This document shows positions 156 through 20,500 of a stretch of DNA of 64,000 bases, in pieces (position 1 is the stretch's first letter; the number at the start of each line of letters is the position of its first letter). Position numbers and translations under genes: made by a program. The notes under the pieces were generated by a model. The model searched no databases. It was not told the DNA's origin and saw only the letters and a list, made by a program, of their open reading frames with translations. Source of the stretch: Liolophura sinensis (taxonomy: Eukaryota; Mollusca; Polyplacophora; Chitonida; Chitonidae); the NCBI RefSeq assembly GCF_032854445.1, contig NC_088295.1, positions 16,603,385-16,667,384 of the forward strand, written 5' to 3'.

Positions 156-397
156 TTACAGGCTACTTTTTGGTCTTAGGTACAGATCTTTCGTCAGCAT
201 TGATGTTATACAGGGAATCTGTTTCTTGTTGGTCATGTGTGCCTTAGCGGCGTTGGACTCAAACTCATAAGCCACCTTTCTGTTGACTCTGGTCATCACA
301 GACAGCAGGTCCATGGTTTTGCCATGCTGTTTCAGCATCTGGATGAGGGCCTGGCAGAACCATGAGCCATTGGTTGAATTCCTCCAAGAGAAGAAAC
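156..397 (-). CDS. CASP3/7-like: Caspase exon 6 (p10 and stop)
   Basis: Acceptor TATTCAG. Encodes GFFSWRNSTNGSWF (S1/S3 pocket of p10), a helix region, KKQIPCITSMLTKDLY and a short basic tail, with the TAA stop at 158-156. The 3' untranslated region runs off the window; no AATAAA is seen on this strand in the remaining 155 bases. Confidence 0.93.
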
Positions 398-3300
398 CTG
401 AATATACATAAAACAATACAATGCTTTTAAAAAAAAATAGTAAAGACAATGAACCAAAAACGAAATCTTTCTAAATGCTACATTTACTTAATGACAATCA
501 GGGCTTCTGTTCAACAGTATTAATTTTGATAGGAAGATCACCATCACTACTAGTTGTTGTGATTTGTGGTCAGACTACTTATTTATCTGTTTATTTGATT
601 GGTGTTCCAAGCATTGTTGTGGGAGAGGGGTCAGACTACTGCTGACTGCTCATAAAATGGGCAGTCTATATCTAAAAACTATATTCCCTAATTCCCCTGA
701 TTTTTGGGACACCTGGCCTGCTCTTTTAAGCCAATATACATGGAATTGTAGCTGGAATATTAAGTTTCTTCTTTTCACACAGTTAGTCCATCTAATGAAC
801 AGCATATTCATATCTTTTTCCAACAAAACTGGGAGAGACATGTAATTCTTTGCTTCAGCACCACTAATATCTGTCCCAAAAATTAGAAGAATTAGGACCT
901 CTGGCAGACTGAGGAAGGTATCTGACATTGGGTACATGTCAGTATGAACAGGTTGTATGTACACACCTGTCATTAAACACACCTGCTCAACACATATAAA
1001 ACAAGTTATTTCCTTGGACTTGTTTTCAGAATATGTCATAACTTGTACCTGGCATAATTTCTGTCACAACATATAGTGATTTCATTATATTTCAGACAAG
1101 TTATACTATGGTAATATGCACCAGCTATGTTAAGTGGGTCGATGGGCTCCATTACCACCATAAAGGACATGTCATGAAACCAAAAACTGTGTAAAATTGG
1201 GTGAATAATTAAAAATAATCCTGATGTAAGAGTTAATATAACTTGGGCGAATCAGTAGTTAGAAGAGAAGCTCCAGTCATAAAAACTACCTGGCACCACC
1301 GAGTAGGCCATGAGAAAGTCTGCCTCTGACGGTATCCTGTGTACTGTAGCTGCGTCCACTTCATCCATCGTCTCTTCTCCTGCCCCGTCAGACTTCTCGA
1401 CACCATGATCTAAACGCGTCCCTCTGCAGGCCTGCATTAGGTACAGACCAATAAAACAGAGTACAACAACATCAACATGAACTGCAGCATTTTGTCAGGC
1501 AAAGCTGTGATGAAACCATAAATACAAAAAATTTTGTTATACACATCTACTTAAGACCTTCAAATTTCAAGAGTGCTACCAAAAAACTTCGAAAATGAAG
1601 GCCTGCTACTTAAATGGTGTGCTTTGTAAGCATGCAACTTGACATTCTGGAGTGTATTCATACCATCATTTCTTCTCCAGGAGGATCAGACAAAGAATTG
1701 TATACAAAAGATATCCAATGTGGATTTCAATATTAATTATAAAATACATTTCTGGACTTGTCAAACTAACATATCAGAATGTCCCACTGACAAGTTGATC
1801 AGAAGCACTTTATATTATCGTAAAATATTTCAAACCCTATCTGGTCTAAATAAAAAGGAACATATCACCACTGAAATGAATGTGAATGAAAATTCGTGAA
1901 ATGTTGACTGTAAATGTAACTTGCACGACTGTTAATTACAGTTGTTAGTACCTGAATGAAGAAGAGTTTAGGTTTGCCAATCAGACTTCTGCAGTTATGC
2001 CCCTTGAATGGCTCCACTATGTCTGTGATGGGAATTGTGCCATCCGTTGCATAGATAATCCCTTCTTCTCCGTGTGTCAAAATAGCACAGGCAAAGCAGT
2101 CAAACCGGGAATGATCAACGGCAGCAGCTAGTAAACAAACAAAGTGCTCTGTCAAACATAAGACATATTCAACAAAGATTTCCCAAACTAATCCGTCTGT
2201 ATTAAACTAACAAGTAAATTGAACAAAATATGATGGTTTTCCAATAAAAGTTAAAATTTCAAACAAATTTCTTAAAAGGTCTATGAGAAAGATCATTTTT
2301 GAGTTGCATTTTCTAAAATTTCTTTATGCATGGTCACAATGTCACCTTTAAAGTTTGGGGTCTGAACCTTCAATATTTTTCCAGATTTGGCCCTACATGT
2401 AAGTAGACCTGAGGTTAAGTCAATCAAGTCTATTTCAGCTCTCAGTCTTTAATTGTACATTGACAAGTTTAAATCAAAACTCTTATCTGTCAGGAAGCAG
2501 ACACAGGAAGCAGACACTGACTCGGATACATGTATGACTTTGACACTAGCCTTATGTGAATGACTGCACATTTATGTAGGCAATGCAAGGCATACAGGAA
2601 TATAATGAACTTTTGTTTTCAAAGGAGATCATAAACATGTGTCATTTTACTGATCAAGACTAATGGTTGCAACTTTGGCTTTGCATGGTTAAAATTCTGC
2701 ATAATTTGTGTTGGATAAATCACTAACTGTAGGTGCTGATTTCTGGAGCTTTACAAACACAATCAATTCACTAAGCTGTTCGTATATCACAACTACACTA
2801 TAACATACACAGACAAATAATAACGCGCAGTATTCTAAAGAGGCCCAACATTTGGTATCTTATTTGTACAGATGAGTGATGAGCAGGTATATACCTCTTT
2901 TAAGTAATCTAGAAGGTCTTTTTTAGACATGTTGTGTTTTAGGTCCACTTTAAACTGTAGGTCTGTGAACACCTGGTACAGTCCAGCGGCATCAACATCT
3001 GTGCCATGCCTCTCTGGCATTCTTAGGTGAGACGCGAATTTACGGTTATTAATTATGAGGGCATAGCCTCTCTCTGGGTAGTCCATTCTGTAAGCATCTG
3101 CAGGTGAAAACCCAGACTCCCCCATTTCCATTGGCGAGCCAATAAACCTGTGAGTTATTGAATATTTTGAATAAATTAAACACAAGATGTAATATATATA
3201 TATACAGGGTGTCCCAGAAGTCGTGAACCATCTTGATTTTCATTTTTTTCTGTGTTTCAGATTTAATACTGATTTAAACAATTTTCTCTCTCTTTCAGAG

Positions 3301-6286
3301 TTAATTATGGCTAATAAACTAACAGTACAAGAAAAGAGTTAAATTGGTTTTTATGTCTGGAAAAGATGGGGCAACACACCGCTCTGTAGCTCAAGCATTC
3401 AGCCTCAACCTGGATGGTGCATGACTTCTGGAACACCCTGCATAATTACAGTTGACAAAAATACACCAGAAAACATAACAGTAAAACTTAAAACATATTA
3501 TCCAGGCATACCTTATCACCAATATCAAACACTTTAGCATGAACAAATAGCCTACTGCTGTGCAGCTAAGGTAAAATTCAGAATATTTCACGGGGTGTTA
3601 TAGCCAAAATGGAAGAACCATATTTGTAAATATGAAAATGTGAGGTAGTGCTATACCTTCGTGTGGGGCCAGCATCAGGGCCGTCATCAGGTGCCCCATC
3701 GCCTTGTCTGCGGGCATCAATATCATCTCCTACAGGGGATGCGCACAGAAAACATCATCAAAAATAAAACGTCTTCTTAAAGCCAGCCATATTCAATTTG
3801 ACACAGACTAAAACCCAAGGTGAAGCCATGAAAATGCATATAAGCTTTGACTTCAGGTAAGATGACATACTTGTTATGCTTTAAGAGAACTGATAATGTG
3901 TCCAGGTAGGACACCTGTTTTAAACACATGTCCACTACTAGTCCAAATATCCAAGTACATTGTACTGCAAATACTTCTCAAAGAACACTAAATTTCCTCA
4001 AAGTCATACTCACATAATGTAGTAAGGATACATTGAATGACAGATTATTTTTATGTCCATATCCTACTATTTATCATATCTGTACCCTTCAGAAAGTACA
4101 TTTACAGTTATTTGCATTACCTTCTTCCATTCTCCAGGATAGAGGCGAAATATTGTTATTAAACAAAGTGACGACATGAAAGTCACATGCTGCAAATGTG
4201 CCAGCTCAGCAAAAGGGCTACAAGAACCTGATATGAGTGACTGGCTGACATATTCTGGCCATGCAGGTGTGAGGGGACATTCACTGGAGTGTGCGTTGTG
4301 TGTGTAAGAGATTAAGCTCATTAAGGGATTATAGCTGTCAGTCTCAGGTCACATAGTGTTGTAATGAACACCTGCTGGTAGAGAGGTTACCACAGGCACT
4401 CTCCCCAAAATACCGAATGTACATGCATACTTGGCCATGGGTTCATGATGCTCAGGGGAAATCACAGATCTTCCCTGCATCCAATCAATGTATGTCTAAC
4501 TTGTCCAATGTATGTCCAACTAATCCAATGTATGTACAATCAAGAACAGAAACAAGTTGTAAAATCCAATGCTAAACTTCAATCCCTGTACCATGTATGA
4601 GGGATGTGGGTGAAATATCCATGTACAGGAAAATGTAATACCCCAGACAGATTGGCTTTGATCAAGCAACACGTGTGTTAAACTGTACATAAAAATGGAA
4701 AAGACCATTTCAGAAATGGGTCAGAACCTGTCCAAAATCTGTTCGCACTGTTTAAAGTGACTACTGCAACCATTTTGATCAAACACACAAGTTTAAAAGA
4801 ATTTCAATCGCATTCTATTCAGATGAGTGCATCCATGCTGCACGCACACAAATGTCAGCATCTTTTTAAATGATCAAAATCTGATCCAAATTGTCAATGT
4901 ACTCATTATGTAGAGCCAATGAATTTGTCTAATATTAACACAATTACTATTATTGTATCTAACTGACCTAGATAGAAAAACCAAAGCTAAACAAATTTAG
5001 TACATGCTTAAAACTCTCTCGATGTTCTAAGTCTATAGAGTCTACAAGCTATACACATTCAATATCCCATATAACCCATCTAAAACTCACAGAATTGTTA
5101 GCAAGACAAGCTTGAAATTGATCTGTAGACATGAAAAACATGTGTTTAATCCAGATTCCAGATTGAATAACTAAGTTTGGTGGCATGCATGTTTCAAGGG
5201 ACTCAAATTAGAGGTGTGCACTAAGTAACTTAGATGATGCTTCGCTGCTAATGCTTGCAGCTGTGGTTCGGGCAGCTAGTCCAATTTCTGCAATTTTTAA
5301 TCCATGGCACCAAGGTGTTATTTAAACTCCACATGCCATGTCTGTACAGCTATTTTGACAAAAAAGAAATGTAAATTATGTGCTTAAATTTTCTGAACAG
5401 AACAAGTCTGGAATGGATTTCAACTTGCACGCATAACTTATTATGCCAGGACACACGGGCTGTTGTTTAAGGGCCAATTTTAATGTAAAATTCTTCAATT
5501 TCTTACCCTAGTATGATTATCAGCAAATATCATGTGGTCCTATACAGTATGACTCTGTATTATACATTTTGATTTTAAAATCCAATCTTGCGGTCTTTTA
5601 TTCAAGGGCGTAAATACCCACCTCTCGTCAGCAACAGCATGAGCCCTGGATATCAACCAAACCATCATAAACTTAGCACCGTACTGGAGTACAATCAAAT
5701 AGCCAAGGCATCGATTCCAATCAATCTATTCTTCAGTCATGGCACAGCACTGCTGTTTCAAGACTAACATAAAAATTTGCGACTGTTTCAGAACTACTGC
5801 GCTTTGCCATGACGGAAGAAAAAGGTTGACTGGGATCCATGCCTGAGTTGGCTATTTGGTTTTACCCTATATCAAATTTATGATGGTTTGGGCAATATCC
5901 TGGACCCATGCCGGTGTTTTGAGAGGTAGCTTTCGACCAGAAATAAAAGACCCGAATATCAGACTCTGTGCCCATTCAGATCCAGAAAGCATAAATCGAG
6001 TCATATTTTAATTTATATGACTAAATTAGTAAACATTACGGTGCTATTGAAAAACAGGCCTTGACGTATAGTTTAACTGAACATTCCTTCCTTATTCATT
6101 CTAAAGAAATAATATATGGTGTGTTATTTTTTTCAAATTGTAGGTGTAGGCCTATACTACAAAGGAAATGACATGAAAATTACAAGTAAACCGAAATCAC
6201 GAACACTTGACAGCAACAACAACATGTCTGTGTCGGAAATTATACACTTTCTTTTAGCTTTTACCTGGTTTCGAGTCATCCATCAT
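156..6286 (-). CDS. CASP3/7-like: Executioner-type caspase (caspase-3/7-like), six exons
   Basis: Cysteine protease that cleaves after Asp in apoptosis. Exons, in transcript order: 6286-6265, 3729-3657, 3147-2895, 2146-1952 (or from 2127), 1431-1290, 397-156. The protein is about 302-308 aa, normal for an effector caspase with a short prodomain and no CARD or DED. Seen directly: GYALIINN (start of p20), R-H-GTDVDA (S1-pocket Arg), LTHGEEG (catalytic His, about residue 141), FFIQACRG (catalytic Cys, about 183; the 42-residue His-Cys spacing equals that of caspase-3), a DEVD-A linker site, then SVVPGFFSWRNSTNGSWF and KKQIPCITSMLT of p10. The start ATG-ATG has an in-frame TAG upstream. The exon 3 to exon 4 junction is the only doubtful one. 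The neighbour on the other strand is a catalytically dead relative. Confidence 0.93.
711..900 (-). repeat. Dispersed repeat copy A, inside caspase intron 5
   Basis: About 190 bases here match 30603-30808 in the same orientation. Shared blocks include ATCTAATGAACA, ACTAATATCTGTCC and TTAGAAGAATTAG. The strand is arbitrary. No coding capacity or terminal repeats are visible; the family is not recognised. Confidence 0.6.
1290..1431 (-). CDS. CASP3/7-like: Caspase exon 5 (catalytic Cys and linker)
   Basis: Starts ACRG straight after FFIQ, completing the QACRG active-site pentapeptide across the splice junction. It continues through an acidic linker with DEVD-A and enters p10 at SEADFLMAYSVVP, ending in phase 1 at CCAG|GTAGTT. 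DEVD is the effector-caspase consensus and the likely auto- or trans-processing site. Confidence 0.93.
1952..2146 (-). CDS. CASP3/7-like: Caspase exon 4 (catalytic His)
   Basis: Encodes AAAVDHSRFDCFACAILTHG and then KPKLFFIQ, ending in phase 0 at CAG|GTACTA. The best-looking acceptor (TTTACTAG, exon from 2127) is off by one base relative to exon 3. The acceptor GACAGAG (exon from 2146) keeps the frame but adds six residues, HFVCLL. The 3' boundary is firm and the 5' boundary is not. Confidence 0.85.
2895..3147 (-). CDS. CASP3/7-like: Caspase exon 3 (N-terminal half of p20)
   Basis: Runs from a CACAG acceptor to AAAGAG|GTATAT. It encodes RFIGSPMEMG, then GYALIINNRKF and MPERHGTDVDA (with the S1 Arg), ending DLLDYLKE. 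It ends in phase 0, whereas the paralogous intron of the neighbouring gene is phase 1, so this junction needs transcript evidence. Confidence 0.88.
3203..3442 (+). mobile_element. Tc1/mariner-type deletion derivative (MITE) in caspase intron 2
   Basis: 240 bases with terminal inverted repeats of about 27 bases (TACAGGGTGTCCCAGAAGTC at the left; the right end, reverse-complemented, reads TGCAGGGTGTTCCAGAAGTC) and a TA target duplication at 3201-3202 and 3443-3444. The interior keeps a broken transposase N-terminus: MANKLTVQEKS, stop, then after a frame change SVAQAF. Terminal repeats, TA duplication and helix-turn-helix-like start fit the IS630/Tc1/mariner superfamily. It is inactive. Confidence 0.8.
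3657..3729 (-). CDS. CASP3/7-like: Caspase exon 2 (prodomain)
   Basis: 73 nt between a CTGTAG acceptor and a CGAAG|GTATAG donor, phase 1 to phase 2. It encodes an acidic, Gly/Pro-rich segment with several Asp residues (DDID-A, DDGPD-A) that could be prodomain cleavage sites; that is inference. No CARD or DED. Confidence 0.8.
5588..5958. mobile_element. Long imperfect palindrome (foldback or MITE-like) in caspase intron 1
   Basis: The two halves are inverted copies over almost their whole length, with the centre near 5773. Matching pairs include GGTCTTTTATT with AATAAAAGACC, ACCAAACCATCATAAA with TTTATGATGGTTTGG, and TCAAATAGCCAA with TTGGCTATTTGG. The arms are about 180 bases and imperfect. 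No open frame spans it and no clear target duplication is seen. The transcript could fold into a long hairpin. Confidence 0.7.
6265..6286 (-). CDS. CASP3/7-like: Caspase exon 1 (start codon)
   Basis: Encodes MMDDSKPG, ending in phase 1 at a CCAG|GTAAAA donor. The initiator is preceded by an in-frame TAG a few codons upstream, and -3 is G. The phase fits exon 2 exactly. The short acidic start resembles MDDSETG of the divergent pseudocaspase. Confidence 0.8.
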
Positions 6287-7888
6287 TCCTTCTCGATGAT
6301 CAGAAAGCTATATGTGTTATGAGCCACTGGGCTTCAGCGTTATTCGCAGAAATGATAACAATAGATCTTCCTAAGATGTTGTCATTTCCGCCGCTTCTGT
6401 TTTCAACATTTAAAATGGTCTACCTTCGATGTAAACTGCTCCAGACCCTAAAAGGTCGCCTGCAGTTTTCTCCCTTTGTTGAGTGGCACCTTCCACTTGA
6501 AATCGTCTTTTTGAATGAAGAAGTTTGGAGTGAAGTATCATTTATAAATAAATATTCAGCGACGAAAGAAAAAATACACAACAACAAAAATTCACATATG
6601 AACTAATATATTTTTGAGTCTTCTTACAAAAAAAAGATCGAGACACGTTGCTATCTTTTTGGATACCAATATGAATATTGTACCTGACTATAGCGTTCAG
6701 ATGCGGGAGTAAATAGTGGTGTACTGAGCATCAGACTCAAATTACAAACTTGTAGAAATAAAAATAATAAAGGCATTCTATAGCATGCTTTTGTTAGTAA
6801 ATCTTAATGATTAATGAGCAATAAAAAATGGACTGTTTTAAGAATTTAATTTACTTAATGGTACCTTTACTCTTGGTTTAATTAGGTACCGGTACCTATG
6901 TTGTGCATAACAGCAGGTATTTCCAAAAATTACAATGGACAAATATCACCAACAGCCCCGGCCCCTCCCACTTCTTACACAGTTCGGCTCAAACTACTGA
7001 TAAATTTGTAACCGGGGAATTAGAGAATTTATACAGTTTAGCACCTAGTAACACTGGGTTAGAATTTTTTATCATTTGAATTTTGATATGTTAAAATTTT
7101 AAAACATAAAATATGTTAACAGTTAAGTGAAGTAGGTGAAAACGTTGTCTTTGGTGTGCCTATACTATATATTCATTATGGGACATTCCAAAGCTGTTCC
7201 AAAACACAAAATAATGTATGGAGTCTTGACATGGGGAGTAAAAACAATATCTCGTTTGGCCATGCAAGAAATTTACAAAAGATATGTGAGAAAGTGACCA
7301 TTTCTACATACAGACTGTCTCTAAATATATTACAAAGCTCTGGTTATAATAAAATCTAGCCGAGTCAATGATAAATGAAAATTGTTCCTCTCCCACCAAA
7401 GTTTTTCAAATACCCTGACCGTAAATAAGGAATTCAGTGCCATTAGAAACCGAGATGAGGCTGATTGAAGGGAGATAATCCACTCAAAGGTTTCAAGTGG
7501 GTACAAAATCGAAGCGGGATGAACCCTTTTCCAGCAAATGCGATTTCAATCATTTGTACGTTTTTCAGAAATACAAAAACATGCATCATATTCACATGTG
7601 ACGCATCTTGTTGGGCTTTACTGTCATACTTTAGTATACCTAGCACACCGTGTAATTATGGTGACGTATGTGTTGTGTTGTCAAAGCCTGAGAATATGAT
7701 AGTGAAATATATTTGCAAACTGAAAGTGAAACTGCAGCGTGTGACTGATTTTAAAAGTGACTGAATCATTGCACCGAAATAGTAGGCCTATATCAACCAA
7801 TTTGTGTCATGTGACGTCTCAGGTAGCTTCCAACATCATCTATCTAGTGTACGCAAGTGACCTATGCAGTGCATGAAAGCAGAGTGAA
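6287..7888. promoter_or_regulatory. Divergent intergenic region between caspase and pseudocaspase
   Basis: 1.6 kb separate the two start codons, which point away from each other, so both promoters and 5' leaders must lie here, unless untranslated first exons lie outside. No TATA box or CpG cluster stands out, and the open frames (6319-6606, 7465-7764) show no recognisable domain or splice support. A shared bidirectional promoter is inference. Confidence 0.5.
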
Positions 7889-7907
7889 ATGGACGATTCA
7901 GAGACAG
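7889..7907 (+). CDS. Pseudocaspase exon 1
   Basis: Encodes MDDSETG with donor ACAG|GTAGGT, phase 1. Its length, phase and MDDS start parallel exon 1 of the divergent caspase, which supports the start choice. Confidence 0.75.
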
Positions 7908-10900
7908 GTAGGTGGACAGACCGTGCATGCTGGCTCCACTTAGGATCAGTTTATGTTAGTCTCATCTAGGTCTTGCATTCATGGACCGTGCAACCCATTT
8001 ACAACCCGTGCATGTGTGAACATGAGCATTAGGCCTAATACCAGCTGATGATATACAGTATGTGACCTATAGATGCTGTTTGCCAGCTTTATATAGGCTG
8101 ACGCACCTACATGGAATTTGTCTCATTCTGGTTGTTGATCCACTGTTCCTTACGATTATCTGTCAGTTTTCGGCAACATGAAATTAGTAAAAAGTACAAG
8201 AAATAAGGAGTTAAGCTTATCCATATGCAGATGCAAACCTACTGTTTTATTTTTTGGTAGTGGATTTCATTATCACAGACTTGTTTCAGATGTGAAAAGA
8301 TGCACTTTGCTTACAAATATGGTATCTGTTTGAAGATGTAGAACAGTTCTGTATAACAGTTCTTGTAACAAGTGTTATAATCAGGAAGCAGATAAGTAAC
8401 ATTTATATATTTATAGGGAAGTTTGAGCGGGCTGATGTCTTTGTGAACAATTATAGTTTGTCATCCAGTCATTACAAGTCATTAGTTTTGTTAATTCTGC
8501 AGTAGGGAAAAGTGATGTTAAGCTTAATATGATTGTGATGTGCCATGGGTAAACATTGTTTTTAATAACAGTTACACGTATCTTTTCAAAAATATTTTAG
8601 GAAATAAGCACATTTAAGATGCAAACTTATGTGACGAACAACATTTTGGTGCCCGGTGATGCCGGACCAACATACTGTACATACAACACATCTGTCATTG
8701 TTCATGCATATAACAACCTACTGTACACAAAAATTTAATATTTGAAAGTGATTTAGCTGAACTGTTAATATTAGTTTGTGGAAGCAAACTGATGCGACAA
8801 ATTCCTTAACTGGCCTATAAAACAGGATGAGGCGTCACCAAGGAAAAGTTTGATAAATTTCAGTCTTGTCTGTCAGACCATCTGCAGTGAGTCTGTTCCT
8901 GGCTTAGGAATGCTCTGTTGTCAGACCCTCTTTAGTGTGCCTGTTCCTGGCTTAGGAATGCTCTGTTGTCAGACCCTCTGCAGTGTGCCCGTCCTTGGCT
9001 TAGGAATGCTCTGTTGTCAGACCCTCTGCAGTGTGCCCGTCCTTGGCTTAGGAATGCTCTGTTGTCAGACCCTCTGCAGTGTGCCTGTTCCTGGGTTAGG
9101 TATGCTCTGTTGTCAGACCCTCTGCAGTGTGCCTGTTTCTGGCTTAGGAATACTCTGTTGTCAGACCCTCTGCAGTGTGCCTGTTCCTGGCTTAGGAATT
9201 CTCTGTTGGTAACTTTAAAATATCAAAGGAATGACATTGGTCATTTTCATTGGCTGGTGAAACCTGAGTGCCTGGCATAAACCACTGACATTTGGCAAGT
9301 TACTGACACTTGTGATGTATAGATTTACACCCCATTTGAGTTGAAAACAACTTGTTTTTTAACAAATGTTAGATGGGGTTTATTGTCACTAGGGTCCCAC
9401 AATCAGCCAGAATGGGTGATCGAATCTACAGATTTCCTTCCCTAGGCTCGGGTTGAATGCACACCATGAATGTCCTGGTGATTGGAAGGCAAGTGCCTTT
9501 GTACCTCAAGGTCATGGCCCACTCATTCTTTATGATTGTATTTATTCATATATTTAAACAAGTTTATATTGAAATTTGCCATGCATTTCAAGTCTGGAAA
9601 TAATTGTGGAGTTGGTGCCGGCCATACCTGCAAATCTTCCAGCTACGAATATTTACATTCTCTAAAAAGCTTACAATGTTATTTTTCTGGCAGTTTTGTC
9701 CTGTGACAAACAGCTGGCCCAGTCAAACTGCTGTTTGGTGCAGGATATTGTCATCATTGTTGCCTATTTCCAGGCTTGCATTTATTAATGCTGGTATGTA
9801 TTTACCATAGGTGAACATCAGGGTTGACTTGTAAAAAATTTTTTGCTTCCAGTCACTTGTGCTCACAGCAGAGATGTGTATTTTGAGCATTTGAACAAAA
9901 GGTAAGACTTAATTTTCTTGATATATTTCATATTGACATAATCCCAATTAAATACTTCAGACCAGTCAGTCCTGTAGTGTTGATTGTCTGTGTGTAGTTG
10001 ACATGAAATGCTGATTTAAAATTGTAAAATGAAAGTAATCAATAATAAAAATACATATTTTATTTGTGTTTTTTGTGGTTTGTAAGTTTGAACAGAATTG
10101 TCACATGTGATTGATTGTTATTTAATGTGAACATAAATGATTTGTAAAGTCAGTCCAAAATTCTTTCATTAATTTTTTAGCATTTTGGATGTGCCGTAAA
10201 AAGCATTTAAAGAAGGATAAAATATGACAACCTTTTCAGACCACATCTAAGTGATGTGACATCATATTATTGTCTTCATAAAAAAATTTGAAAATGGTTA
10301 CTTTCCTTATGAAATACCTCTGGTTGATTCTAATAAGTTTTCATGGATTTTTTATTCACTCAACAATTGATTTTTATTCTGGATTTTCAGAAAAAGGAAT
10401 TTGAAATATATCTGGACTCTGTTACACTTCATTAGAAGCAGACATGATTTTTGGCTTTATGATGTAAACTGTAATCCTACTTCAGGTCTGTTCCCGCACA
10501 GAACAGTGATGATGAATACAGCACAGCGCATCGTTATCGTGGACTTGCAGTTGTAATTAATAACAGTTCATTAGTGCGTCAAGAAAGTGCTGGTTCACAA
10601 CAAGATGCGGACTATATGGCGAAGACGCTGAAAAGTCTGCAATTTAAGGTTCAGCAAGTCAAGGACGTCAGAGGAGCTGATCTGAGCAGACTTTTGTACA
10701 AAGGTAAAATTTAATCCTGACCCATAAATCACTGATACTGGTTCAAATTTTAGAATATTTCAAGCCTTAGAAAATGATGTTTTGATCATCAGAATGCATT
10801 TTCTGTCAGTAGTTTCTCTGGTAAATTATGTAATTCACTGCATACATATGACCGGCCCGGATAGCACAGTTGGTAGAGCATCCGCTTCAGGACCAGTAGA

Positions 10901-13900
10901 TCCAGGATCAATCCTTAATCGAGTCACACCTAAGACTTTAAAAGAGGAAGTTGTAACTTCCTCGCTTGGCGTTCAGCATGAAGGGGATAGTGCAACGACT
11001 GGTTGACCCGTATCAGTATAATGGCTCGGGCGGGGCGCCTTACTTGCCTTCGGTAAGTCGTCTCAGTGAAGCAGCACTAAATAAAAGAGCGGTGGAAATC
11101 CGTCCTGCAACAAGGAGGCACATTACATGTACGTGCACCATAAGGATTCCTTCGTCGTCATATGACTGAAAAATTGTTGAGTACGACATTAAACCCCAGA
11201 CACTCACTCACTAACTCACTCTGCATACATATGTAAGGCCAGGCCAATTTCAGGCAAAAATAAATTTGTGCAAAATGCAGACTGTTTCAGCAATTGCTCC
11301 TGTTTAAACATATTTATGTGATAAGCAAGCCTTGAAAAAAAAGAAAAATCATCTGAAACATTAAAATTGGATATTTTCAATTTATTTTTTTTTAATTCCA
11401 TTTTTTGTAATTTTTAGGGTTGGCATGCCCATAGAGATAAATTTGGTTTTGCCTAAACTACAGTTATGCCTGACATGCGCTGAAGTTTAACGCTTTTATT
11501 TTTCTTATAATAATATATTATACTGTATTATTGACAGTGTCGCAAGACAGTTACCATGGCAATGCTGACTGCTTTGTGTGTGTCATAATCAAGCGTGAAG
11601 ACGGGGCAGTAAAGTCACAGCATAGCCAGATGTCTGTGACCCGAGGGCTTGATGTGGTAGACTGTACCGAAGCTACAAGTGGAAACAATAGTCATATGTT
11701 TAATGACATAAATTGTCCACAACTTTCCGGGAAGCCAAGACTGTTTTTCATTCAGGTATAAGTTAAACTTACTTGTTATTTATTTAAGCGGTTTTAGTGT
11801 GAGTCTGGACTAAGTTTATTTATTTATTTGATTGGTGTTTTATCCTGTACTAGAATATATCACTTACACAACAGCAGCCAGCATAATGGTGAGAGGAAAA
11901 AGGAGCAGAGCGTTGGAAACCCACGACCATCCACAGCTTGCTGATAGACCTTCCCATGTATGGCCAGAGAGGAATCCAGCATGAGCTGGGCTTGAACTCA
12001 TAGCGATTGGTGAGAGGCTCCTTTGTCATTGCGTCATGTTGGCATGCAAACCATGGAGGCCACGGAAGCCCCTTCTGGACAGATGCGATATACAGGGTAA
12101 TTAAGGTGCATCAGTACTGGGTGGACAATCAGTACCATTATTAGGTAGAATAGGAGTAAGATGTTATGTACTGAATATAGCTGCTTGGTAATCAGTACTG
12201 GGTGGACAATCAGTACCATTATTAGGTAGAATAGGAGTAAGATGTTGTGCACTGAACATAGCAACTTGGTAATCAGTACTGGGTTGACAAGCAGTACCAG
12301 TATTAGGTAGAACAGCAGTATGATGTTGTGTACTGAATATAGCCACTTGGTGATCAGTACTGGGTGGACAAGCAGTTCAAGTATTAGGTAGAACAGCAGT
12401 ATGATGTTGTGTACTGAATATAGCCACTTGGTGATCAGTACTGGGTGGACAATCAGTACCAGTATTAGGTAGAATAGGAGTAAGATGTTGTGTACTGAAT
12501 ATAGCAACTTGGTAATCAGTACTGAGTGGACAATCAGTACCATTATTAGGTAGAACAGCAGTGTTATGTTGTGTACTGAATATAGCCACTTGGTAATCAG
12601 TACTGGGTGGACAATCAGTACCATTATTAGGTAGAACAGCAGTGTTATGTTGTGTACTGAATATAGCCACTTGGTGATCAGTACTGGGTGGACAATCAGT
12701 ACCAGTATTAGGTAGAACAGCAGTGTTATGTTGTGTACTGAATATAGCCACTTGGTGATCAGTACTGGGTGGACAATCAGTACCAGTATTAGGTAGAACA
12801 GCAGTGTTATGTTGTGTACTGAATATAGCCACTTGGTGATCAGTACTGGGTGGACATTCAGTACCAGTATTAGGTAGAATAGCAGTATGATGTTGTGTAC
12901 TGAATATAACCTCTTGGTAATCAGTACTGGGTGGACAGTCAGTATCAGTATTAGATAGAACAGCAGTAAGATGTTGTGTACTGAATATAGCAACTTGGTA
13001 ATCAGTACTGAGTGGACAGTCAGTACCAGTATTACACAGAACAGCAGTGTTATGTTGTGTACTGAATATAGCCACTTGGTAATCAGTACTGGGTGGACAA
13101 TCAGTACCAGTATAAGGTAAAATAGGAGTAAGATGTTGTGTACTGAATATAGCAACTTGGTAATCAGTACTGGGTGGACAATCAGTACCAGTATTAGGTA
13201 GAACAGCAGTAATATGTTGCATACTGAATATAGCCCCTTGGTAATCAGTACTGGGTGGACAATCAGTACCAGTATTAGGTAGAACAGCAGTGTTATGTTG
13301 TGTACTGAATATAGCCACTTGGTAATCAGTACTGGGTGGACAATCAGTACCAGTATTAGGTAGAACAGCAGTGTTATGTTGTGTACTGAATATAGCCACT
13401 TGGTGATCAGTACTGGGTGGACAATCAGTACCAGTATTAGGTAGAACAGCAGTGTTATGTTGTGTACTGAATATAGCCACTTGGTGATCAGTACTGGGTG
13501 GACAATCAGTACCAGTACTAGGTAGAACAGCAGTGTTATGTTGTGTACTGAATATAGCAACTCAGTGGACAAGCAGTACAAGTCTTAGGTGGAACAGCGG
13601 TATGATGTTGTGTACTGAATAGATCACATGGTGAACAGTACTGTTATGTTCTGTATGGGGTAAGTTAGTTGTGGATGAACCGAAACATGTGGTTTAACTG
13701 TGATATAGTGTTGATGGCAAGTATGGTGTTCAGTACTAGTTAACAAGCCAACAGTGTAGTTGCCAATGCTGTGTGAGAAAGTGGTTATGTCGTGAAGACT
13801 CGGTCTGGTGTTCAGTGCTGTATGGATCAGTAATGTGTTGTTCAGCAGTGGGTGGGTCAGTGGTCTGGTGTTCAGCACTGGGTGTGTCAGTGGTCTGGTT

Positions 13901-16900
13901 TTCAGCGCTGGGTGGGTCAGCAGTCTGGTGTTCAGCACTGGGTACGTTAGTAGTCTGGTGTTCAGTGCTGGATGGATCAGTAGTCTGGTGTTCAGCACTC
14001 AGTGGATCAGTAGTCTGGTGTTCAGCACTGGGTGGGTCAGTAGTCCAGTGTACAGTGCTGGTTGGGCCACTAGTCTGGTGTTCAGCACTAGGTGTGTCAG
14101 TTCTCTGGTGTTCAGTGCTGGATTAGTCAGTAATCTGTTTTTCAGCACTAGGTGGGTCAATAGTGTGGTGTTCAGCACTGGGTCGGTCAGCAGTCTGGTG
14201 TTCAGCACTATGTGGGTCAGTAGTGCAGTGTTCAGCACTAGGTGGGTCAGTAGTCTAGTGTTCAGCACTAGGTGTGTCAGTGGTGTGGAGTTCAACACTG
14301 GGTGTGTCAGTGGTCTGGTGTTCAGCACTGGTTGGGTCAGCAGTCTGGTGTTCAGCACTGGAAGGGTCAGTAGTCTAGTGGTTAGTAATCTGTTGTTCAG
14401 CACTAGGTGGGTCAATAGTGTGGTGTTCAGCACTGGGTGTGTCAGTAGTCTGGTTTTCAATGCTGTATGGATCAGTAATGTGTTGTTCAGGAGTGGGTGG
14501 GTCAGCAGTCTTTTGTTCAGCACTGGATGGGTCAGTAGTCTAGCGTTCAGCACTGTGTGGTTAGTAATCTGGTGTTCAACACTACATGGTCAGTAATGTA
14601 TTGTTCAGCAGTGGGTGGGTCAGTAGTCAGGTGTTCAGCACTGGGTGTGTCAGTGGTCTAGTGGTCAGCACTGGGTGTGTCAGTGGTCTGGTGTTCAGCA
14701 CTGGGTGGGTCAGTAGTCTGGTGTTGAGCACTGTGTGGGTCAGTAGTGTGGTGTTCAGAACTGGGTGGGTCAGTAGTGTGGTGTTCAGAACTGGGTGGGT
14801 CAGTAGTGTGGTGTTCAGCACTGGGTGTGTCAGTAGTCTAGCGTTCAGTGCTGGATTAGTCAGTAATCTGTTGTTCAGCACTAGGTGGGTCAATAGTGTG
14901 GTGTTCAGCACTAGGTGGGTCAGTAGTTTAGTGTTCAGAAGTAGGTGTGTCAGTGTTGTGGAGTTCAGCACTAGGTGTGTCCGTAGTCTAGTGTTCAGTG
15001 CTGGATTAGTCAGTAATCTGTTGTTCAGCACTAGGTGGGTCAATAGTGTGGTGTTCAGCACAATGTGGGCCAGTAGTCTAGTGTTCAGCAGTAGGTGTGT
15101 CAGTGTTGTGGAGTTCAGCACTGGGTGTGTCAGTGGTCTGGTGTTCAGCACTGGGTGGGTCAGCAGTCTGGTGTTCAGCGCTGGTGGGTCAGTAGTCTAG
15201 TGTTCAGCACTGTGTGGTTAGTAATCTGTTGTTCAACACTAGGTGGTCAGTAATGTATTGTTCAGCAGTGGGTGGGTCAGTAGTATGGTGTTCAGCACTG
15301 GGTGTGTCAGTGGTCTGGTGTTCAGCACTAGGTGGGTCAGTAGTCTAGTGTTCAGCACTGGGTGGGTCAGTAGTCTGGTGTTGAGCACTGTGTGGGTCAG
15401 TAGTGTGGTGTTCAGCACTGGATGGGTCAGTATTCTAGTGGTTAGTAATCTGTTGTTCAGCACTGGGTTTGTCAGTAGTCTTGAGTTCAGTGCTGGGTGT
15501 GTCAGTAGTCTGGTGTTCAGCACTGGGTGTGTCAGTAGTCTGGTGTTCAGCACTGTGTGGTTAGTAATCTGTTGTTCAACACTAGGTGGTCAGTAATGTG
15601 TTGTTCAGCACTGGGTGGGTCAGTAGTCTGGTGTTCAGCACTGGGTGTGGCAGTGGTCTGGTGTTCAGCACTGGGCGTGTCAGTGGTCTGGCGTTCAGCA
15701 CTGGGTACGTTAGTAGTCTAGTGTTCAGTGCTGGATGGATCAGTAGTCTAGTGTTTAGCCCTAGGTGGGTCAGTGGTCCCCTGTTCAGCACTGGAAGGGT
15801 CAGGGGTCAAGTGTTTAGCACTGGGTGGGTCAGTAGTCTGGTGTTCAGGACTGGGTGGGTCAGTAGTCTGGTGTTCAGCCCTAGGTGGGTCAGTGGTCTC
15901 CTCTTCAGCACTGGAAGGGTCAGTAGTCTAGTGTTCAGCATTGGGTGGGTCAGCAGTCTGGTGTTCAGCACTGGGTGGGTCAGTAGTCTAGTGTTCAGCC
16001 TTAGGTGGGTCAGTGGTCTCCTCTTCAGCACTGGAAGGGTCAGTAGCCTAGTGTTCAGCACTGGGTGGGTCAGTAGTCTGGTGTTCAGGACTGGGTGGAT
16101 CAGTAGTCTAGTGTTCAGCACTGGGTGGGTCAGTAGTCTGGTGTTCAGCACTGGGTACGTTAGTATTCTAGTGTTCAGTGCTGGATGGATCAGTAGTCTG
16201 GTGTTCAGCACTCAGTGGATCAGTAGTCTGGTGTTCAGCACTGGGTGGGTCAGTAGTCCAGTGTACAGTGCGGGTTGGGCCAGTAGTCTGGTGTTAAGTG
16301 CTGAATAGATTTAAATCTTTGAATCCATCACCATTTTACTTAGTTGAGAGTTCTGTTTGCCTGAGTTGTTCCTTGTTTATTGTCATGTCTTGGAGGATTT
16401 CTCTTTATATAAGTCTATACAGCTTACAAGTAGAGGAATATCCACGTACCCCAACCAAGGGAGACAACCGAGAACTCAAACTTACTCACAAAAACTGAAA
16501 TCCCAGACCTTTACCTAACATCTGTGGTCCATGTAACAATTTCTTGTATTTCAGACCATTAGTGAGAGCAGCATGTACAGTGATGTCAGAGTACAAGATG
16601 GCCTTGATGAGGTGGATGCTTGTGTTGTCAGACCACCTGCACCAATTCCTCCTATTCAGGAGAAGTGCATGATCAAGACTCTCAGGGATGAGAAACTTTA
16701 CAAAGACTTCTTGTTAATGTATGCTACGTGTCCAGGTAAGTCATGTAGTGCTAGTCTGTGTGGCTAGGGTTTGTGTGTGTTGTAAGTGCTTTATTGTCTG
16801 CGTCATGCCAGTTAAACTGAATGGCCTTTCAAATCTGATAGACGATTGTCCCTTTGATTTACTGATGATTTTCCTTTGATGTGCCAGCTGATGATTTCCC

Positions 16901-17524
16901 TTTGATATGCTAACTGATGATTTCCCTTTGATATGCCAACTGATGATTTCTCTTTGATATGCTAACTGATGATTTCCCTTTCATTTGCCAATTGATGATT
17001 TCCCTTTCATAGACCGACTGATGATTTCCCTTTCATAGACCGGCTGATGATTTCCCTTTCATAGCCCGGCTGATGATTTCCCTTTCATAGACTGACTGAT
17101 CATTTCCCTTTCATATTCTTTAAGTTAACTGATGTTTCATTTTATTAGTATAACTGGTAACTGGTAACTTTCCCTATGATGTGATATCTTATGATTGTCC
17201 TTACCATATAGTGATGGATGATTTTCTCAGTCATTTGATATGGCAACTGATAATTCATTATTTTCCATATGTAGTAACTTCTGGTTGTTCACCTATTGTG
17301 TTTCCATCTAAATAATTTCCCATATTTCTCCAGGAAACGACAGTAATGGAAGAGTATCCAGGTTCACCCAGCTGTTATGCCAGGCACTCACAGAAGCCAG
17401 AGGTCGAAGTTTACTGCGTATGTTGACCTGTGTCTGTGGTCAGATGATCAAGCACAACAGTTCAGTTCCATGTATTTACAGCAAACTGACAAGAGATTTG
17501 GTCTTCAAAAACAAGCAGATATGA
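7889..17524 (+). CDS. Caspase-fold pseudoenzyme (pseudocaspase), six exons
   Basis: Exons: 7889-7907, 9874-9901, 10486-10703, 11538-11755, 16555-16735, 17334-17524; total 855 nt, an unbroken frame of 284 aa. The caspase fold is clear from RYRGLAVVINN, DCFVCVII, GKPRLFFIQ and KDFLLMYATCPG. The enzyme is dead: QACRG is replaced by QTISE (Cys to Ile163), the HG of the catalytic His is replaced by RE (His to Arg108), the R-G-TDVDA Arg is gone and the YSWRN pocket motif is absent. A DEVD-A linker site (179-182) is kept. The start has a strong context (GAAATGG) and an in-frame TGA upstream. Known parallels in role are cFLIP and nematode CSP-3; a regulatory role here is inference. Exon 2 is the least certain part. 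Confidence 0.87.
8868..9212 (+). repeat. 48-bp minisatellite in pseudocaspase intron 1
   Basis: About seven copies of a 48-base unit containing GGCTTAGGAATGCTCTGTTG and CAGACCCTCTGCAGTGTGCC. 48 is a multiple of three, so long open frames arise in two frames by chance. Copies are 90% or more alike by eye. Confidence 0.9.
9874..9901 (+). CDS. Pseudocaspase exon 2 (28 nt, probable)
   Basis: A microexon between GCAGAG and AAAAG|GTAAGA, phase 1 to phase 2, which is exactly what exons 1 and 3 require. It encodes DVYFEHLNKR. Other acceptors a few bases upstream give a stop. It is supported only by phase and splice sites, so another exon could replace it. Confidence 0.5.
10486..10703 (+). CDS. Pseudocaspase exon 3 (N-terminal p20-like)
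   Basis: Acceptor ACTTCAG, donor ACAAAG|GTAAAA, phase 2 to phase 1. Encodes HRYRGLAVVINN, equivalent to the first p20 strand, then QQDADYMAKTLKSLQFKV, ending LSRLLYK. Where active caspases have Arg before GTDVDA, this protein has GSQQDAD, so the S1 Arg is missing. Confidence 0.9.
10851..11220 (+). mobile_element. tRNA-derived SINE with perfect target-site duplication
   Basis: 370 bases flanked by the identical 13-mer CTGCATACATATG at 10838-10850 and 11221-11233. The head looks like a tRNA: GGCCCGGATAGCACAGTTGG contains an A box, and GGATCAATCC is a degraded B box. The body is non-coding (TTGGCGTTCAGCATGAAGGG and on) and the tail is a CACTCACTCACT run. A and B boxes, tail and target duplication fit a pol III SINE moved by a LINE. 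It lies in pseudocaspase intron 3. Confidence 0.92.
11538..11755 (+). CDS. Pseudocaspase exon 4 (catalytic His position lost)
   Basis: Acceptor ATTGACAG, donor TTCAG|GTATAA, phase 1 to 0. Encodes DCFVCVIIKREDGAV: the ungapped alignment with the active neighbour (DCFACAILTHGEEG) puts Arg where the catalytic His should be. It ends GKPRLFFIQ. About 13 residues are inserted between the His and Cys positions compared with the neighbour. Confidence 0.92.
11818..12000 (+). repeat. Dispersed repeat, ATTTATTTGATTGGTGTTTT family, copy in pseudocaspase intron 4
   Basis: Starts TTTATTTATTTGATTGGTG and continues AACAGCAGCCAGCATAATGG, ACCCACGACCATCCACAG and GGGCTTGAACTC. The same ordered blocks recur at least seven times in this window. 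Non-coding; family name not recognised. Confidence 0.75.
12111..13620. repeat. 81-bp minisatellite array in pseudocaspase intron 4
   Basis: About 18 copies of an 81-base unit (for example TCAGTACTGGGTGGACAATC followed by AGTACCAGTATTAGGTAGAA) spaced exactly 81 at 12111, 12192 and 12273. Because 81 is divisible by three, one minus-strand frame stays open for 515 codons as a 27-residue repeat. It lies inside an intron and has no coding support. Confidence 0.93.
13802..16308. repeat. 30-bp minisatellite array with higher-order structure, pseudocaspase intron 4
   Basis: About 83 copies of a 30-base unit such as TGGTCTGGTGTTCAGCACTG plus GGTGGGTCAG. Variant units form blocks: TTAGTAATCTGTTGTTCAGC recurs at intervals, and a block of about 150 bases near 13930-14090 reappears at 16140-16300. 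Open frames on both strands are a by-product of the period. The core AGYACTRGGTGG is shared with the adjacent 81-bp array. Confidence 0.93.
16555..16735 (+). CDS. Pseudocaspase exon 5 (catalytic Cys position lost, DEVD kept)
   Basis: Acceptor TATTTCAG, donor CCAG|GTAAGT, phase 0 to 1. It begins TISESS directly after FFIQ, so the active-site ACRG is gone. The linker keeps GLDEVDACVV, then a Pro-rich stretch and KDFLLMYATCPG of the p10 start. Confidence 0.92.
16857..17118. repeat. 26-bp minisatellite in pseudocaspase intron 5
   Basis: About ten copies of a 26-base unit ACTGATGATTTCCCTTTGAT-ATGCCA. Later copies change to TTTCATAGACCGG. It lies between the Cys-position exon and the p10-like exon. 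Confidence 0.9.
17334..17524 (+). CDS. Pseudocaspase exon 6 (p10-like, stop)
   Basis: Acceptor TTCTCCAG. Encodes GNDSNGRVSRFTQLLCQAL and ends KLTRDLVFKNKQI with TGA at 17522-17524. The SWRN substrate-pocket motif is absent. The IPCITSMLTK-like strand survives as VPCIYSKLTRDL, which secures homology to p10. Confidence 0.9.
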
Positions 17525-20500
17525 ACAAAGACATTTCCTCTTTGCATCTACAACTTTTATATTCCGAACATTAAAAAGGGTTTTATCATGGTATCATAAT
17601 TTCATCTGTCTGTTATTAGATTGGTGCCAGTCGTTTAGCATGTGCAGCTTCCTGTATATTTGTTCTGCTAGTGCAGTTTTCATCTTGACATTTGTCAGTT
17701 TCTGTTTTGTACTTTAATAATGCTGTGTTAACCAGATTGCCCATTTTGCTACATTTCTGCATATCATAAACCAAGAATATATTTGCTCGCTCTTGCATCA
17801 AACTCAGCTGAGTCCAGTGTCTCATAATGAAGTCTACAGTATTGTTTTCATAAATAATTTAGGAAGACACTGACCTCATTGAGGCATTGAGGCAAAAATA
17901 AATAAGTCACATGGTCTGTCTTGAAGCCCTGTGCACGTAAAACAAGCCCCTCCTGTATTAAGCTTTCAACTATGCTACTTGCGATCACAGTGATCTTCGA
18001 ACTGAAATGTACATACATGTATGTTTTCAATGTATCAACTATCTAGATAAAATCTCATCTGTCTTAACTTTACTTGTTCAGAATCTAAATACGATACTTA
18101 GATCTATTATTATAGAAAGCCTTTTCGTAAGGCTACGTCCCTTAACACTCTTGCACACGTGCATTGTTAAGACCAAACAGGGTACGGGAAAGGGGCCATC
18201 ACCCACTCTCTGGTTTGTTCTCTGTACATGTGTGTATGGGTTCCAGCCAGCAGGAGGGCAGTTAGGGGTCAGCAATGGGCCATCTCCCAGTACTCTACTT
18301 CTGTTGGCTGGAACAGCACTGTTGGATTGGTTGTGTTGTTGCTTTTTGTATGTATGAATGTATGTAGCTTGACTTTTCAAACTACATGACACCTTATCTT
18401 GCTTGATAAGCTGATTTTTTACTGGACTCAGAAGCTTGTATCCTGTATATTGTTTGCTGGCTGAAGGCTTTGGAGAAGAACAGTTTCATTATAAATTGAC
18501 TGAGCTACTTTCACTAAATAAAGATATTATACCCTACCAAAAACTCAATCTTCATAAAATAAACTATGGGAGAAAAAACAACAATAAACAGATAGAAATA
18601 CATCTCAATGTACACATTTATTTGTAATCTGCAATATGGTTTTATTCTCATCGTCTTTATATAATGTACATATACAGGAACTTCATAACAACTGACTGGA
18701 CTATGTATTATGCAGAGAAGCCCAGAGAAGCACCTGTTTTTCACAACCCTTTTTTCTAACAGCCAGTTACCAATGAATTCACTAAAATTACACCTTCCAA
18801 ATCTGAGGCATTAGCTTACCTGAAAAGTATAAACAGGGGATCCTTGTAGATATATAAAGAAAAAATAAACAATCAAGGTGCATATAGAGCTGCAATGGGG
18901 GCCATTATGCAGATTTCTGTGTTGCAAGAAAATACACAGTACTATTGTAGGTCCATATAAATGGGAAAAGCCGACCATTCACAAATTTAACAGAACCAAA
19001 CCAAAAATAAATTCTGCAATACAAAAACAGTGTAGTTTGCCACCATTAAACAAAAATTCAGACTTTTAAAAACAAATCAAATTATTCAAAGCTTTGTGTT
19101 AATTATTAAGAGTTTATTATTGAGGAATTGCATGGTGGTGTATGTTTATATAACCACAGTATACCAGGGAGATAGTGGCTTAACACCGCCACAACAAGGG
19201 AGATAATCCAGAGACTTAACTACATGACATTACATGAACAATCCAAACAGTCAAGAGACGTCTCACAACAATTAGAATTTATTCCTGTTTTATGTCAGCA
19301 GAAGGCTTTCTGGCAAAGAGAGATGTAGAACTGAATAAACAACAGAGCTGTTACATATGAGTTAAGAAACAAATCATTATGCTGTATGAAGATATTTGAT
19401 AGTATTAAAGCTACATACATTTGGTGTACAAAATTAAAATTTGTTTAAAAAGTTTCATTTAAAAAAAAAAAATGCAAACATCACTGGAACCTGAGAGACA
19501 AATTGTTCAATACTGTGAAACTAATGGTAATACACTAAAATAACAACATCTACGACATTGTGTAACATGAGAGCAACACTTAAAGCTGTTAGAAATATTT
19601 GTTGGGACTATGATAAAGTGCTCAAGAACAAATCCAGTTTCAAGAATGGAAAGGATGTTTTAAGTTCTTTTTCGTTTTGTCAGTCAAAAATATCATTAAC
19701 CACCGACTTGTACAAAATTATAAAAGAAAAACTTTTTCCGCAAAATAGTTCACATTTCTTTAAAGCATACTAAAGAGAATACATGTGTCAAAGATTTCCA
19801 AGTTAATTTCATTACCCCATGGCTTCCATGGTAACAGTATGCCAGGAAAACTGATCACCATAAAAGAGGACACAAAGCATACTGATATGAAAATTGGTAA
19901 TGATTTGTAAATTAAAATATCATAGCCTGTAGTATAATTGGGATTTGTTTTTAATATCATAAAAATACTTGTATGAACTCATCATATGGGTATAGGCCCA
20001 AATCTAGGCTTTACTTAACTTTAAACATTTCAGCACTATCAGATATCATTTTAACCCTCCCCAAGCTAGTTTGTGAAATATGCAGGATATTTTCAAATTG
20101 CTACTAAGATGCATGTGTATTTATATACAGCATATTTTATATACCAGTGAAATCACACATTTACATCATAACCATACACATTTTGACCAATCACATTGCG
20201 GATAATTTTCACAACCAGACATTACAAACCAGCATCATGCATTTATGCCCAATGAGAATCAGCTTTGATACAAACCTACCAATCACGACCAAACCATCAT
20301 AGGCAACATCACCAAACCCATGTGAAAGACAAAGCAGGTGAAAGTAGTCCAACTTTTAGACTATAGTCCACATACAACTATACCATATTCATGGTAAACA
20401 GTGGTATGCTTTACCACGACAAATTCAAAAATCTTTCTACACTTAACAACATATCAGCTGTCTAGCTTCTCACAGCTCACAGTACCCTGCGTTATCCATT

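What the first reader, a model, noticed from the sequence alone, without database searches (positions are those of the whole stretch)
7889..17524. Intact pseudocaspase: caspase fold with every catalytic landmark replaced
The gene keeps an unbroken 284-codon frame over six exons with good splice sites, yet Cys becomes Ile (QTISE for QACRG), His becomes Arg, the S1 Arg before TDVDA is lost and SWRN is absent. A dying pseudogene would show stops or broken splice sites; none are seen. This suggests selection for a non-enzymatic role, such as a decoy or regulator of the caspase next door. Caspase homologs with this kind of role are known (cFLIP, C. elegans CSP-3), but this one appears to be an independent case.
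Basis: partly seen in the sequence, partly recalled or inferred. Interest (0 to 1): 0.88.

Follow-up and report, generated by a model that had tools for sequence, protein, structure and literature searches.

The report
Chiton pseudocaspase kept by selection
A chiton (a marine mollusc) carries an intact gene for a caspase-shaped protein that has lost its cutting residues, yet natural selection still preserves its folded core, so it probably regulates the animal's real cell-death enzymes.

Summary
Confirmed, with corrections. The window is chromosome C1 of Liolophura sinensis. The gene has six exons, GT/AG introns and 291 codons (not 284), identical to a public "caspase-like" protein. The S1 Arg, His, His-Gly, Ala-Cys-x-Gly and SWRN Arg, each present in 72 of 72 chosen relatives, are replaced or absent; Gln168 stays. 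No ACRG-type exon was found nearby. Translated exons 4 and 6 from one or two unnamed relatives have no stop or indel and are far more conserved than flanking codons: exon-4 core 43/44, former active-site loops 9/28, flanks 18/37. This is a selected pseudoenzyme, not a relic, in the parts tested. It is not a recent copy of the caspase next door: it groups with another molluscan caspase clade (100/98; sister-to-neighbour AU p=0.014, long branch). Its inter-subunit linker carries DEVD|A, so active executioners could cut it. Best guess: a non-catalytic partner of executioner caspases, working like cFLIP-L or Aedes CASPS18. Expression, partners and direction of effect are untested. Catalytically dead caspases are already listed in bivalves: a new member of a known kind.

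The parts
7889..7907 (+). exon 1 of the pseudocaspase (MDDSET; the neighbour starts MMDDSKP)
9853..9901 (+). exon 2
10486..10703 (+). exon 3, p20 start; S1 Arg replaced by Ser57 (codon 10586-10588)
11538..11755 (+). exon 4, p20; catalytic His replaced by Arg115 (codon 11594-11596); conserved core with fast loops
11756..16554 (+). intron 4, mostly minisatellites, no ACRG-type exon found
16555..16735 (+). exon 5; QTISE in place of QACRG (Gln is the last codon of exon 4); inter-subunit linker; start of p10 (LYKDFLLMYATCPG)
16606..16620 (+). codons for DEVD|A (residues 186-190), an executioner-type processing site
   Evidence: DEVD at residue 186; 1357 of 400000 shuffles of the 50-residue piece contain DEVD
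17334..17524 (+). exon 6, rest of p10; the five codons for (Y/F)(F/Y)(S/A)WR are absent; stop TGA
156..6286 (-). neighbouring executioner-type caspase, head to head with the pseudocaspase (THG, QACRG, SWRN, DEVDA present; intron-3 donor out of phase)

Best explanation
The gene encodes a functional pseudocaspase. Shown by sequence: the catalytic Cys and His and both S1 arginines are gone (Gln168 stays), and exons 4 and 6 are under purifying selection on the fold, with the former active-site loops of exon 4 released. Inferred: it belongs with a second molluscan executioner-like clade, lost catalysis in the chiton lineage, and its surviving job is to bind other caspases. It would pair through the conserved p10 dimer strand with active executioner caspases (the neighbour, C2 or C3 of the same cluster, or others), be cut in trans at DEVD189|A, and so raise or lower the threshold of executioner activity, in the way cFLIP-L tunes caspase-8 or CASPS18 tunes CASPS19.
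Against: No expression, binding or assay data. The orthologue is known only as translated pieces of two contigs of unnamed origin, so true dN/dS was not computed, and its exon 5 (Cys position and DEVD) was not recovered. In the relative the L. sinensis stop codon reads Trp and the frame runs on for 25 residues, so the C-terminus differs and that flank may be translated there. DEVD is in only 1 of the 9 clade members and 3 of 70 relatives whose linker could be parsed, so it may be newly gained instead of retained. The dimer strand carries Lys279 where Met is nearly invariant. Heterodimer prediction was not possible. The neighbour may itself be impaired.
Confidence: 0.48

Rival explanations
1. 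Selected pseudoenzyme whose role does not involve caspase pairing: a scaffold that binds some other protein through the caspase fold.
For: The same selection data fit any fold-preserving role. Lys279 in the dimer strand. End branch 3.97 against a median of 0.39 means much of the surface has changed.
Against: The DEVD|A linker site and the identical C-terminal strand in the relative are easier to explain if it meets caspases.
Confidence: 0.28
2. Competitive substrate decoy: a monomer or inert homodimer that presents DEVD to executioners and soaks up their activity without pairing.
For: DEVD|A in a linker predicted with low confidence (pLDDT under 50 at 175-180 and 191-193).
Against: Would not need the exon-4 core and exon 6 to be preserved as strictly as seen.
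Confidence: 0.1
3. Decaying gene: a duplicated caspase that lost catalysis and is drifting, still open by chance.
For: Very long branch; the exon-4 loops evolve at or above the neutral rate; intron 4 filled by minisatellites.
Against: Exon-4 core 43/44 and exon 6 53/62 identical where flanks give 18/37. Of 4000 simulations per setting, none reached the core value at the best-fit neutral divergence or at either end of its range, and at most 0.05% reached the exon-6 value. All splice sites and 291 codons intact.
Confidence: 0.06
4. Gene-model or assembly artefact: an alternative exon supplies ACRG, or exons of two genes were joined.
For: Intron 4 is 4.8 kb, mostly repeats, in which an exon could hide.
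Against: No ACRG-type exon found on either strand (positive control). The relative's exon 4 independently lacks the His and its exon 6 lacks SWR. Public model identical.
Confidence: 0.03

Closest known systems
cFLIP-L (human pseudo-caspase, paralogue of caspase-8)
   Same: Caspase fold without activity, gene beside an active caspase (PMC11121540, passages), cut between its large and small subunits (PMC7586951, passages)
   Different: cFLIP is initiator-type and recruited through tandem DEDs; this protein has a short N-terminus with no recruitment domain detected, and is closest to executioner-like caspases
Aedes aegypti CASPS18 (decoy that enhances CASPS19)
   Same: Effector-type caspase homologue without catalytic function, paralogue of an active caspase (seen only as described in passages of PMC4840389 and PMC3141678; Bryant 2010 itself not held)
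   Different: Insect lineage, homologue of Drosophila Decay; this gene belongs with a molluscan clade and is not a recent copy of its neighbour
C. elegans CSP-3
   Same: Caspase homologue without an active site (PMC3591282, passages)
   Different: Its reported anti-apoptotic role was not reproduced in PMC3591282, and it is an independent lineage
Bivalve caspases with lost catalytic dyad (oyster Cg3/7-like, Cg3A, mussel Mg2-like and several M. coruscus caspase-3/6/7)
   Same: Molluscan caspases lacking His and/or Cys (PMC7836458, PMC10967218, passages)
   Different: Most of the oyster 3/7-like proteins hold only p20; no test of selection appeared in the passages read. Here p20 and p10 are both kept, catalytic Cys, His and both S1 arginines are lost, and selection was tested on two exons
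Second molluscan caspase clade (Haliotis caspase-7/3-like P0003, P0005, P0006, P0009; Bulinus, Biomphalaria, Arion, Plakobranchus; P0004)
   Same: Insert after the His motif, GKPRLFF or DKPRLFF, (I/L)Y(K/M/E)D(F/C/S)L-type p10 start; one side of a 100/98 branch with the pseudocaspase
   Different: All nine have the Cys, His and the Arg of the SWRN segment

Membership tests
Caspase (Peptidase_C14) fold family | C14 domain by profile and by fold | tested here: met
Active caspase | Catalytic Cys and His | tested here: not met
   Ile170 and Arg115; 72 of 72 relatives have Cys and His
Active caspase | S1-pocket arginines for P1 Asp | tested here: not met
   Ser57, and SWR absent; Arg in 72 of 72 relatives at both places; the third S1 residue, Gln168, is kept
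Pseudocaspase (functional kind) | Intact gene without catalytic residues, under purifying selection | tested here: met
   selection tested on exons 4 and 6 only; expression not tested
Pseudocaspase (functional kind) | Binds and modulates an active caspase | not testable with these tools
   No complex prediction or assay available
cFLIP family | Tandem death-effector domains | tested here: not met
   Only PF00656 at 41-284, 40 residues before it
cFLIP family | Caspase-type site in the linker between pseudo-subunits | tested here: met
   DEVD|A at 186-190 by sequence; cleavage itself not tested
Recent tandem copy of the neighbouring caspase | Sister to the neighbour in the tree | tested here: not met
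   AU p=0.0144; with P0013 p=0.0032; long branch, so some caution
Second molluscan caspase clade | Groups with Haliotis and heterobranch caspase-7/3-like proteins | tested here: met
   One side of a branch, 100/98, with 9 of 9 clade rows; these rows came from the search with this gene itself, and root and inner order are unresolved

The most novel reading that the evidence does not exclude
Chitons turned their only copy of an ancient molluscan executioner clade into a pseudo-executioner that is cut at DEVD by active executioners and feeds back on them: a FLIP-like switch acting at the execution step instead of at death receptors, conserved between species, with its dead active-site loops free to evolve.
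Probability: 0.27. Interest if true: 0.75.

Novelty: new member of a known kind. Interest (0 to 1): 0.55.

Why it matters
Pseudocaspases with a demonstrated role are few, and the best known works at the initiator step. This one keeps p20, p10 and a linker site of an executioner while losing its catalytic residues and S1 arginines, and selection separates the fold (kept) from the active-site loops (released). It gives a defined case for asking what catalytically dead molluscan caspases, listed in bivalves without a tested function in the passages I read, are kept for.

Tried and rejected
Alternative ACRG exon: none found in 801 stop-to-stop frames (8 residues or longer) of window 6300-19000 on both strands.

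Loss of SWRN by a 15-nt downstream shift of the exon-6 acceptor: the last 15 intron bases match the codons of four paralogues no better than other intron-5 windows (best 7/15, 8.6% of windows as good). Deletion and acceptor shift stay open.

Recent tandem copy of the neighbour, or of C2/C3: rejected by AU tests (p=0.014, 0.003, 0.014), with the caution that the row is a very long branch.

Whole-genome search with an active member of the second clade (P0003) or with P0001: not completed. That I saw no other member of that clade in the genome rests on the PF00656 search (29 matches, 36 of 36 candidates scored) and on reading tblastn output for the fetched loci; it is not exhaustive.

Expression: no tool. 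dN/dS from orthologous DNA: only translated fragments were available, so a simulation against flanking codons was used instead. Left out of the flank set before counting: codons next to splice sites, the stop position, and 25 codons of intron 5 just upstream of exon 6 (1/25 identical without gaps), as not alignable; the last makes the test conservative. The core/loop partition of exon 4 was drawn after seeing the alignment.

Papers: the listings of searches (each capped or short) showed no chiton pseudocaspase; that is a claim about those listings only.

Full report
WHAT IS THERE. The window is G000:C1:16603385-16667384 of a 609-Mb assembly. It is Liolophura sinensis: the gene's protein is in public data as 'caspase-like [Liolophura sinensis]', 291 aa, 100% identity over 100%, on a contig of 96,433,062 bases, which equals the length of C1. 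A genome of this species was first published as L. japonica and later corrected (PMC12441733, whole text; that this window is from that assembly is inferred). I rebuilt the gene before that search: six exons, GT/AG introns, phases 1,2,1,0,1, last base of the stop at 17524.

CATALYTIC LANDMARKS. In alignment A2 (74 rows chosen by me from the 132 proteins returned) I compared the gene with the 72 rows other than itself and its orthologous fragment. All 72 have the S1 Arg, His, the Gly after it, Gln-Ala-Cys-x-Gly and the Arg of the SWRN segment. The gene has Ser57, Arg115, Glu116, Gln168 (kept), Thr169-Ile170-Ser171-Glu172, and no SWR. Relatives found by similarity are biased to intact enzymes, so 72 of 72 describes what is usual, not what is universal. 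No ACRG-type exon was found in 6300-19000 on either strand; the same profile finds the neighbour's at E 6.6e-24. Intron 4 is largely an 81-bp and a 30-bp minisatellite.

SELECTION. Two database proteins of source 'lgn' (which I take from memory to be assembled public reads) are translated pieces of the orthologous locus in one or two unnamed relatives. P0012 (91 aa) holds exon 4 with a few intron residues on both sides; P0002 (175 aa) holds exon 6, sequence of the intron before it and sequence after the L. sinensis stop. Flanks next to the exons align too, so they are orthologous or nearly so. Neither piece has a stop or indel within the exon. Identity: exon 4 52/72, exon 6 53/62, flanking codons 3/6, 3/7 and 12/24, together 18/37; exon 6 against its own 3' flank, Fisher p=0.0011. 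Against simplicity: at the L. sinensis stop the relative reads Trp and its frame runs on for 25 residues, so the 3' flank may be translated there; constraint on it would make my test conservative. Simulating neutral change from the L. sinensis DNA, the flanks fit about 0.34-0.36 substitutions per site (range 0.20-0.56 over three ts/tv settings). At the best fit exon 6 should keep about 30 of 62 residues, not 53, and the exon-4 core about 21 of 44, not 43. Of 4000 simulations per setting none reached the core value at the best fit or at either end of the range, and at most 0.05% reached the exon-6 value. The two exon-4 loops keep 9/28 where 13-14 are expected (P 0.06-0.07 at the best fit, 0.001 at the low end, 0.5 at the high end). 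Effective rates relative to the flanks are about 0.06 for the core (the lowest step of the grid), 0.2 for exon 6 and 1.7 for the loops. The loop that held the catalytic His is KREDGAVK here and NSEDKRIE in the relative: the His is absent in both. The partition was drawn after seeing the alignment, the flank sample is small, and exons 1-3 and 5 of the relative were not recovered. Still, this rejects a relic for the parts tested: the fold is kept and the dead active-site loops are let go.

ANCESTRY. A tree of 29 rows (25 of the 27 proteins of A1, the two fragments left out, plus four L. sinensis caspases joined by me) puts the gene with nine intact caspases (four of Haliotis, one each of Bulinus, Biomphalaria, Arion and Plakobranchus, and P0004), 100/98, apart from the neighbour, C2, C3, C5 and the caspase-3 type. 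Two cautions: its end branch is 3.97 against a median of 0.39, and the nine rows came from the search with this gene (they are 9 of its 11 hits, the others being itself and P0002), while the other proteins came from the search with the neighbour. Highest identity in the tree alignment was to C3 (34% over 234 columns). Characters seen in alignment A1 agree with the tree: an insert after the His motif, KPRLFF, and a p10 start LYKDFLLMYATCPG against IYKDFLLMYATPPG in several of that clade and SEADFLMAYSVVPG in the neighbour's. Sister to the neighbour is rejected (AU p=0.0144; with P0013 0.0032; with C2 and C3 0.0143). Among the caspase-like loci of the genome (29 exon matches) I saw none with the clade's marks in the tblastn output for the fetched loci, so the pseudocaspase may be the chiton's only member; the direct search did not complete. 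In Haliotis asinina (P0003, P0009, P0039) and H. rufescens (P0006, P0026) members of both clades share a contig length and so probably a chromosome.

SURROUNDINGS. The gene lies head to head with the neighbour (start codons at 6286 on - and 7889 on +). Beyond the neighbour's 3' end are two more caspases on the - strand, C2 (16592922-16594917) and C3 (16585430-16587932), both with SHG and QACQG; C3 has AWWN in place of SWRN. The neighbour has THG, QACRG, SWRN and DEVDA, but its intron-3 donor is phase 0 while its acceptor, and the same intron in the pseudocaspase, C2, C3 and two other paralogues, fits phase 1 (read by eye; one of these has a GC donor). Canonical splicing would shift the frame; an AG 19 nt upstream of the usual acceptor would restore it with extra residues. 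No row named L. sinensis and none above 65% identity was among the 120 listed of 2175 hits. Whether the neighbour is impaired, spliced differently or mis-assembled is open.

MECHANISM. Shown: catalytic Cys and His lost, caspase fold predicted, purifying selection on the tested core, no recruitment domain found, linker DEVD|A. DEVD appears in 1357 of 400000 shuffles of the piece. The neighbour and P0004 carry DEVDA in the same linker, but among 70 relatives whose linker could be parsed only 3 have DEVD (P0004, P0036, P0051), one of them in this clade of nine; so it may be retained or newly gained. Inferred: it meets active executioners, is cut by them, and works as a non-catalytic partner. Whether it restrains or helps them cannot be told from sequence: cFLIP-L does both, by ratio (PMC7586951, passages), CASPS18 is described as enhancing CASPS19 (PMC4840389, passages), and the anti-apoptotic role of CSP-3 was not reproduced in PMC3591282 (passages).

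NOVELTY. Oyster and mussel caspases without His and/or Cys are in print: oyster Cg3A, Cg3/7-like and mussel Mg2-like (PMC7836458, passages) and several Mytilus coruscus genes (PMC10967218, passages). The first paper says that further research is needed on whether these unusual caspases are functional. What is added here is one case with p20 and p10 both kept, catalytic residues and S1 arginines lost, evidence of selection, clade assignment and a processing site. The search for Polyplacophora with caspase and apoptosis listed three papers, none on this by title and the start of the abstract. Hence: new member of a known kind.

Noticed in passing
window 1952-2895 (- strand), neighbour intron 3: Donor GAG|GTATAT is phase 0 but the acceptor and five homologous introns fit phase 1; canonical splicing would frameshift the neighbour unless an AG 19 nt upstream is used. 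No L. sinensis protein for the neighbour was among the 120 rows listed.
   Followed up: partly
window 12110-13562 and 13803-16295: Intron 4 holds an 81-bp minisatellite (17.9 copies) and a long 30-bp array; further arrays at 8871-9208 (48 bp) and 16861-17116 (26 bp).
   Followed up: no
window 17522-17524 and P0002: The stop codon of L. sinensis is not shared by the relative, whose frame runs on for 25 residues.
   Followed up: no
L009 2400-2660 (- strand; genome C1 about 16585.5 kb): Paralogue C3 keeps SHG and QACQG but has AWWN instead of SWRN, so its S1 pocket may differ.
   Followed up: no
L012 2164-2716 (- strand; genome C1 about 11474 kb): Another caspase locus shows several QAC(R/K)-type exon starts, partly within a 70-bp tandem repeat, as if the start of the catalytic exon had been multiplied.
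   Followed up: partly
window 59162-59614 (+): ORF with a GIY-YIG domain (E 1.7e-7), perhaps part of a Penelope-like retroelement (recalled).
   Followed up: no
Haliotis asinina P0003, P0009, P0039; H. rufescens P0006, P0026: Members of both caspase clades lie on contigs of the same length, so probably on one chromosome: linkage of the two clades may be ancient.
   Followed up: no
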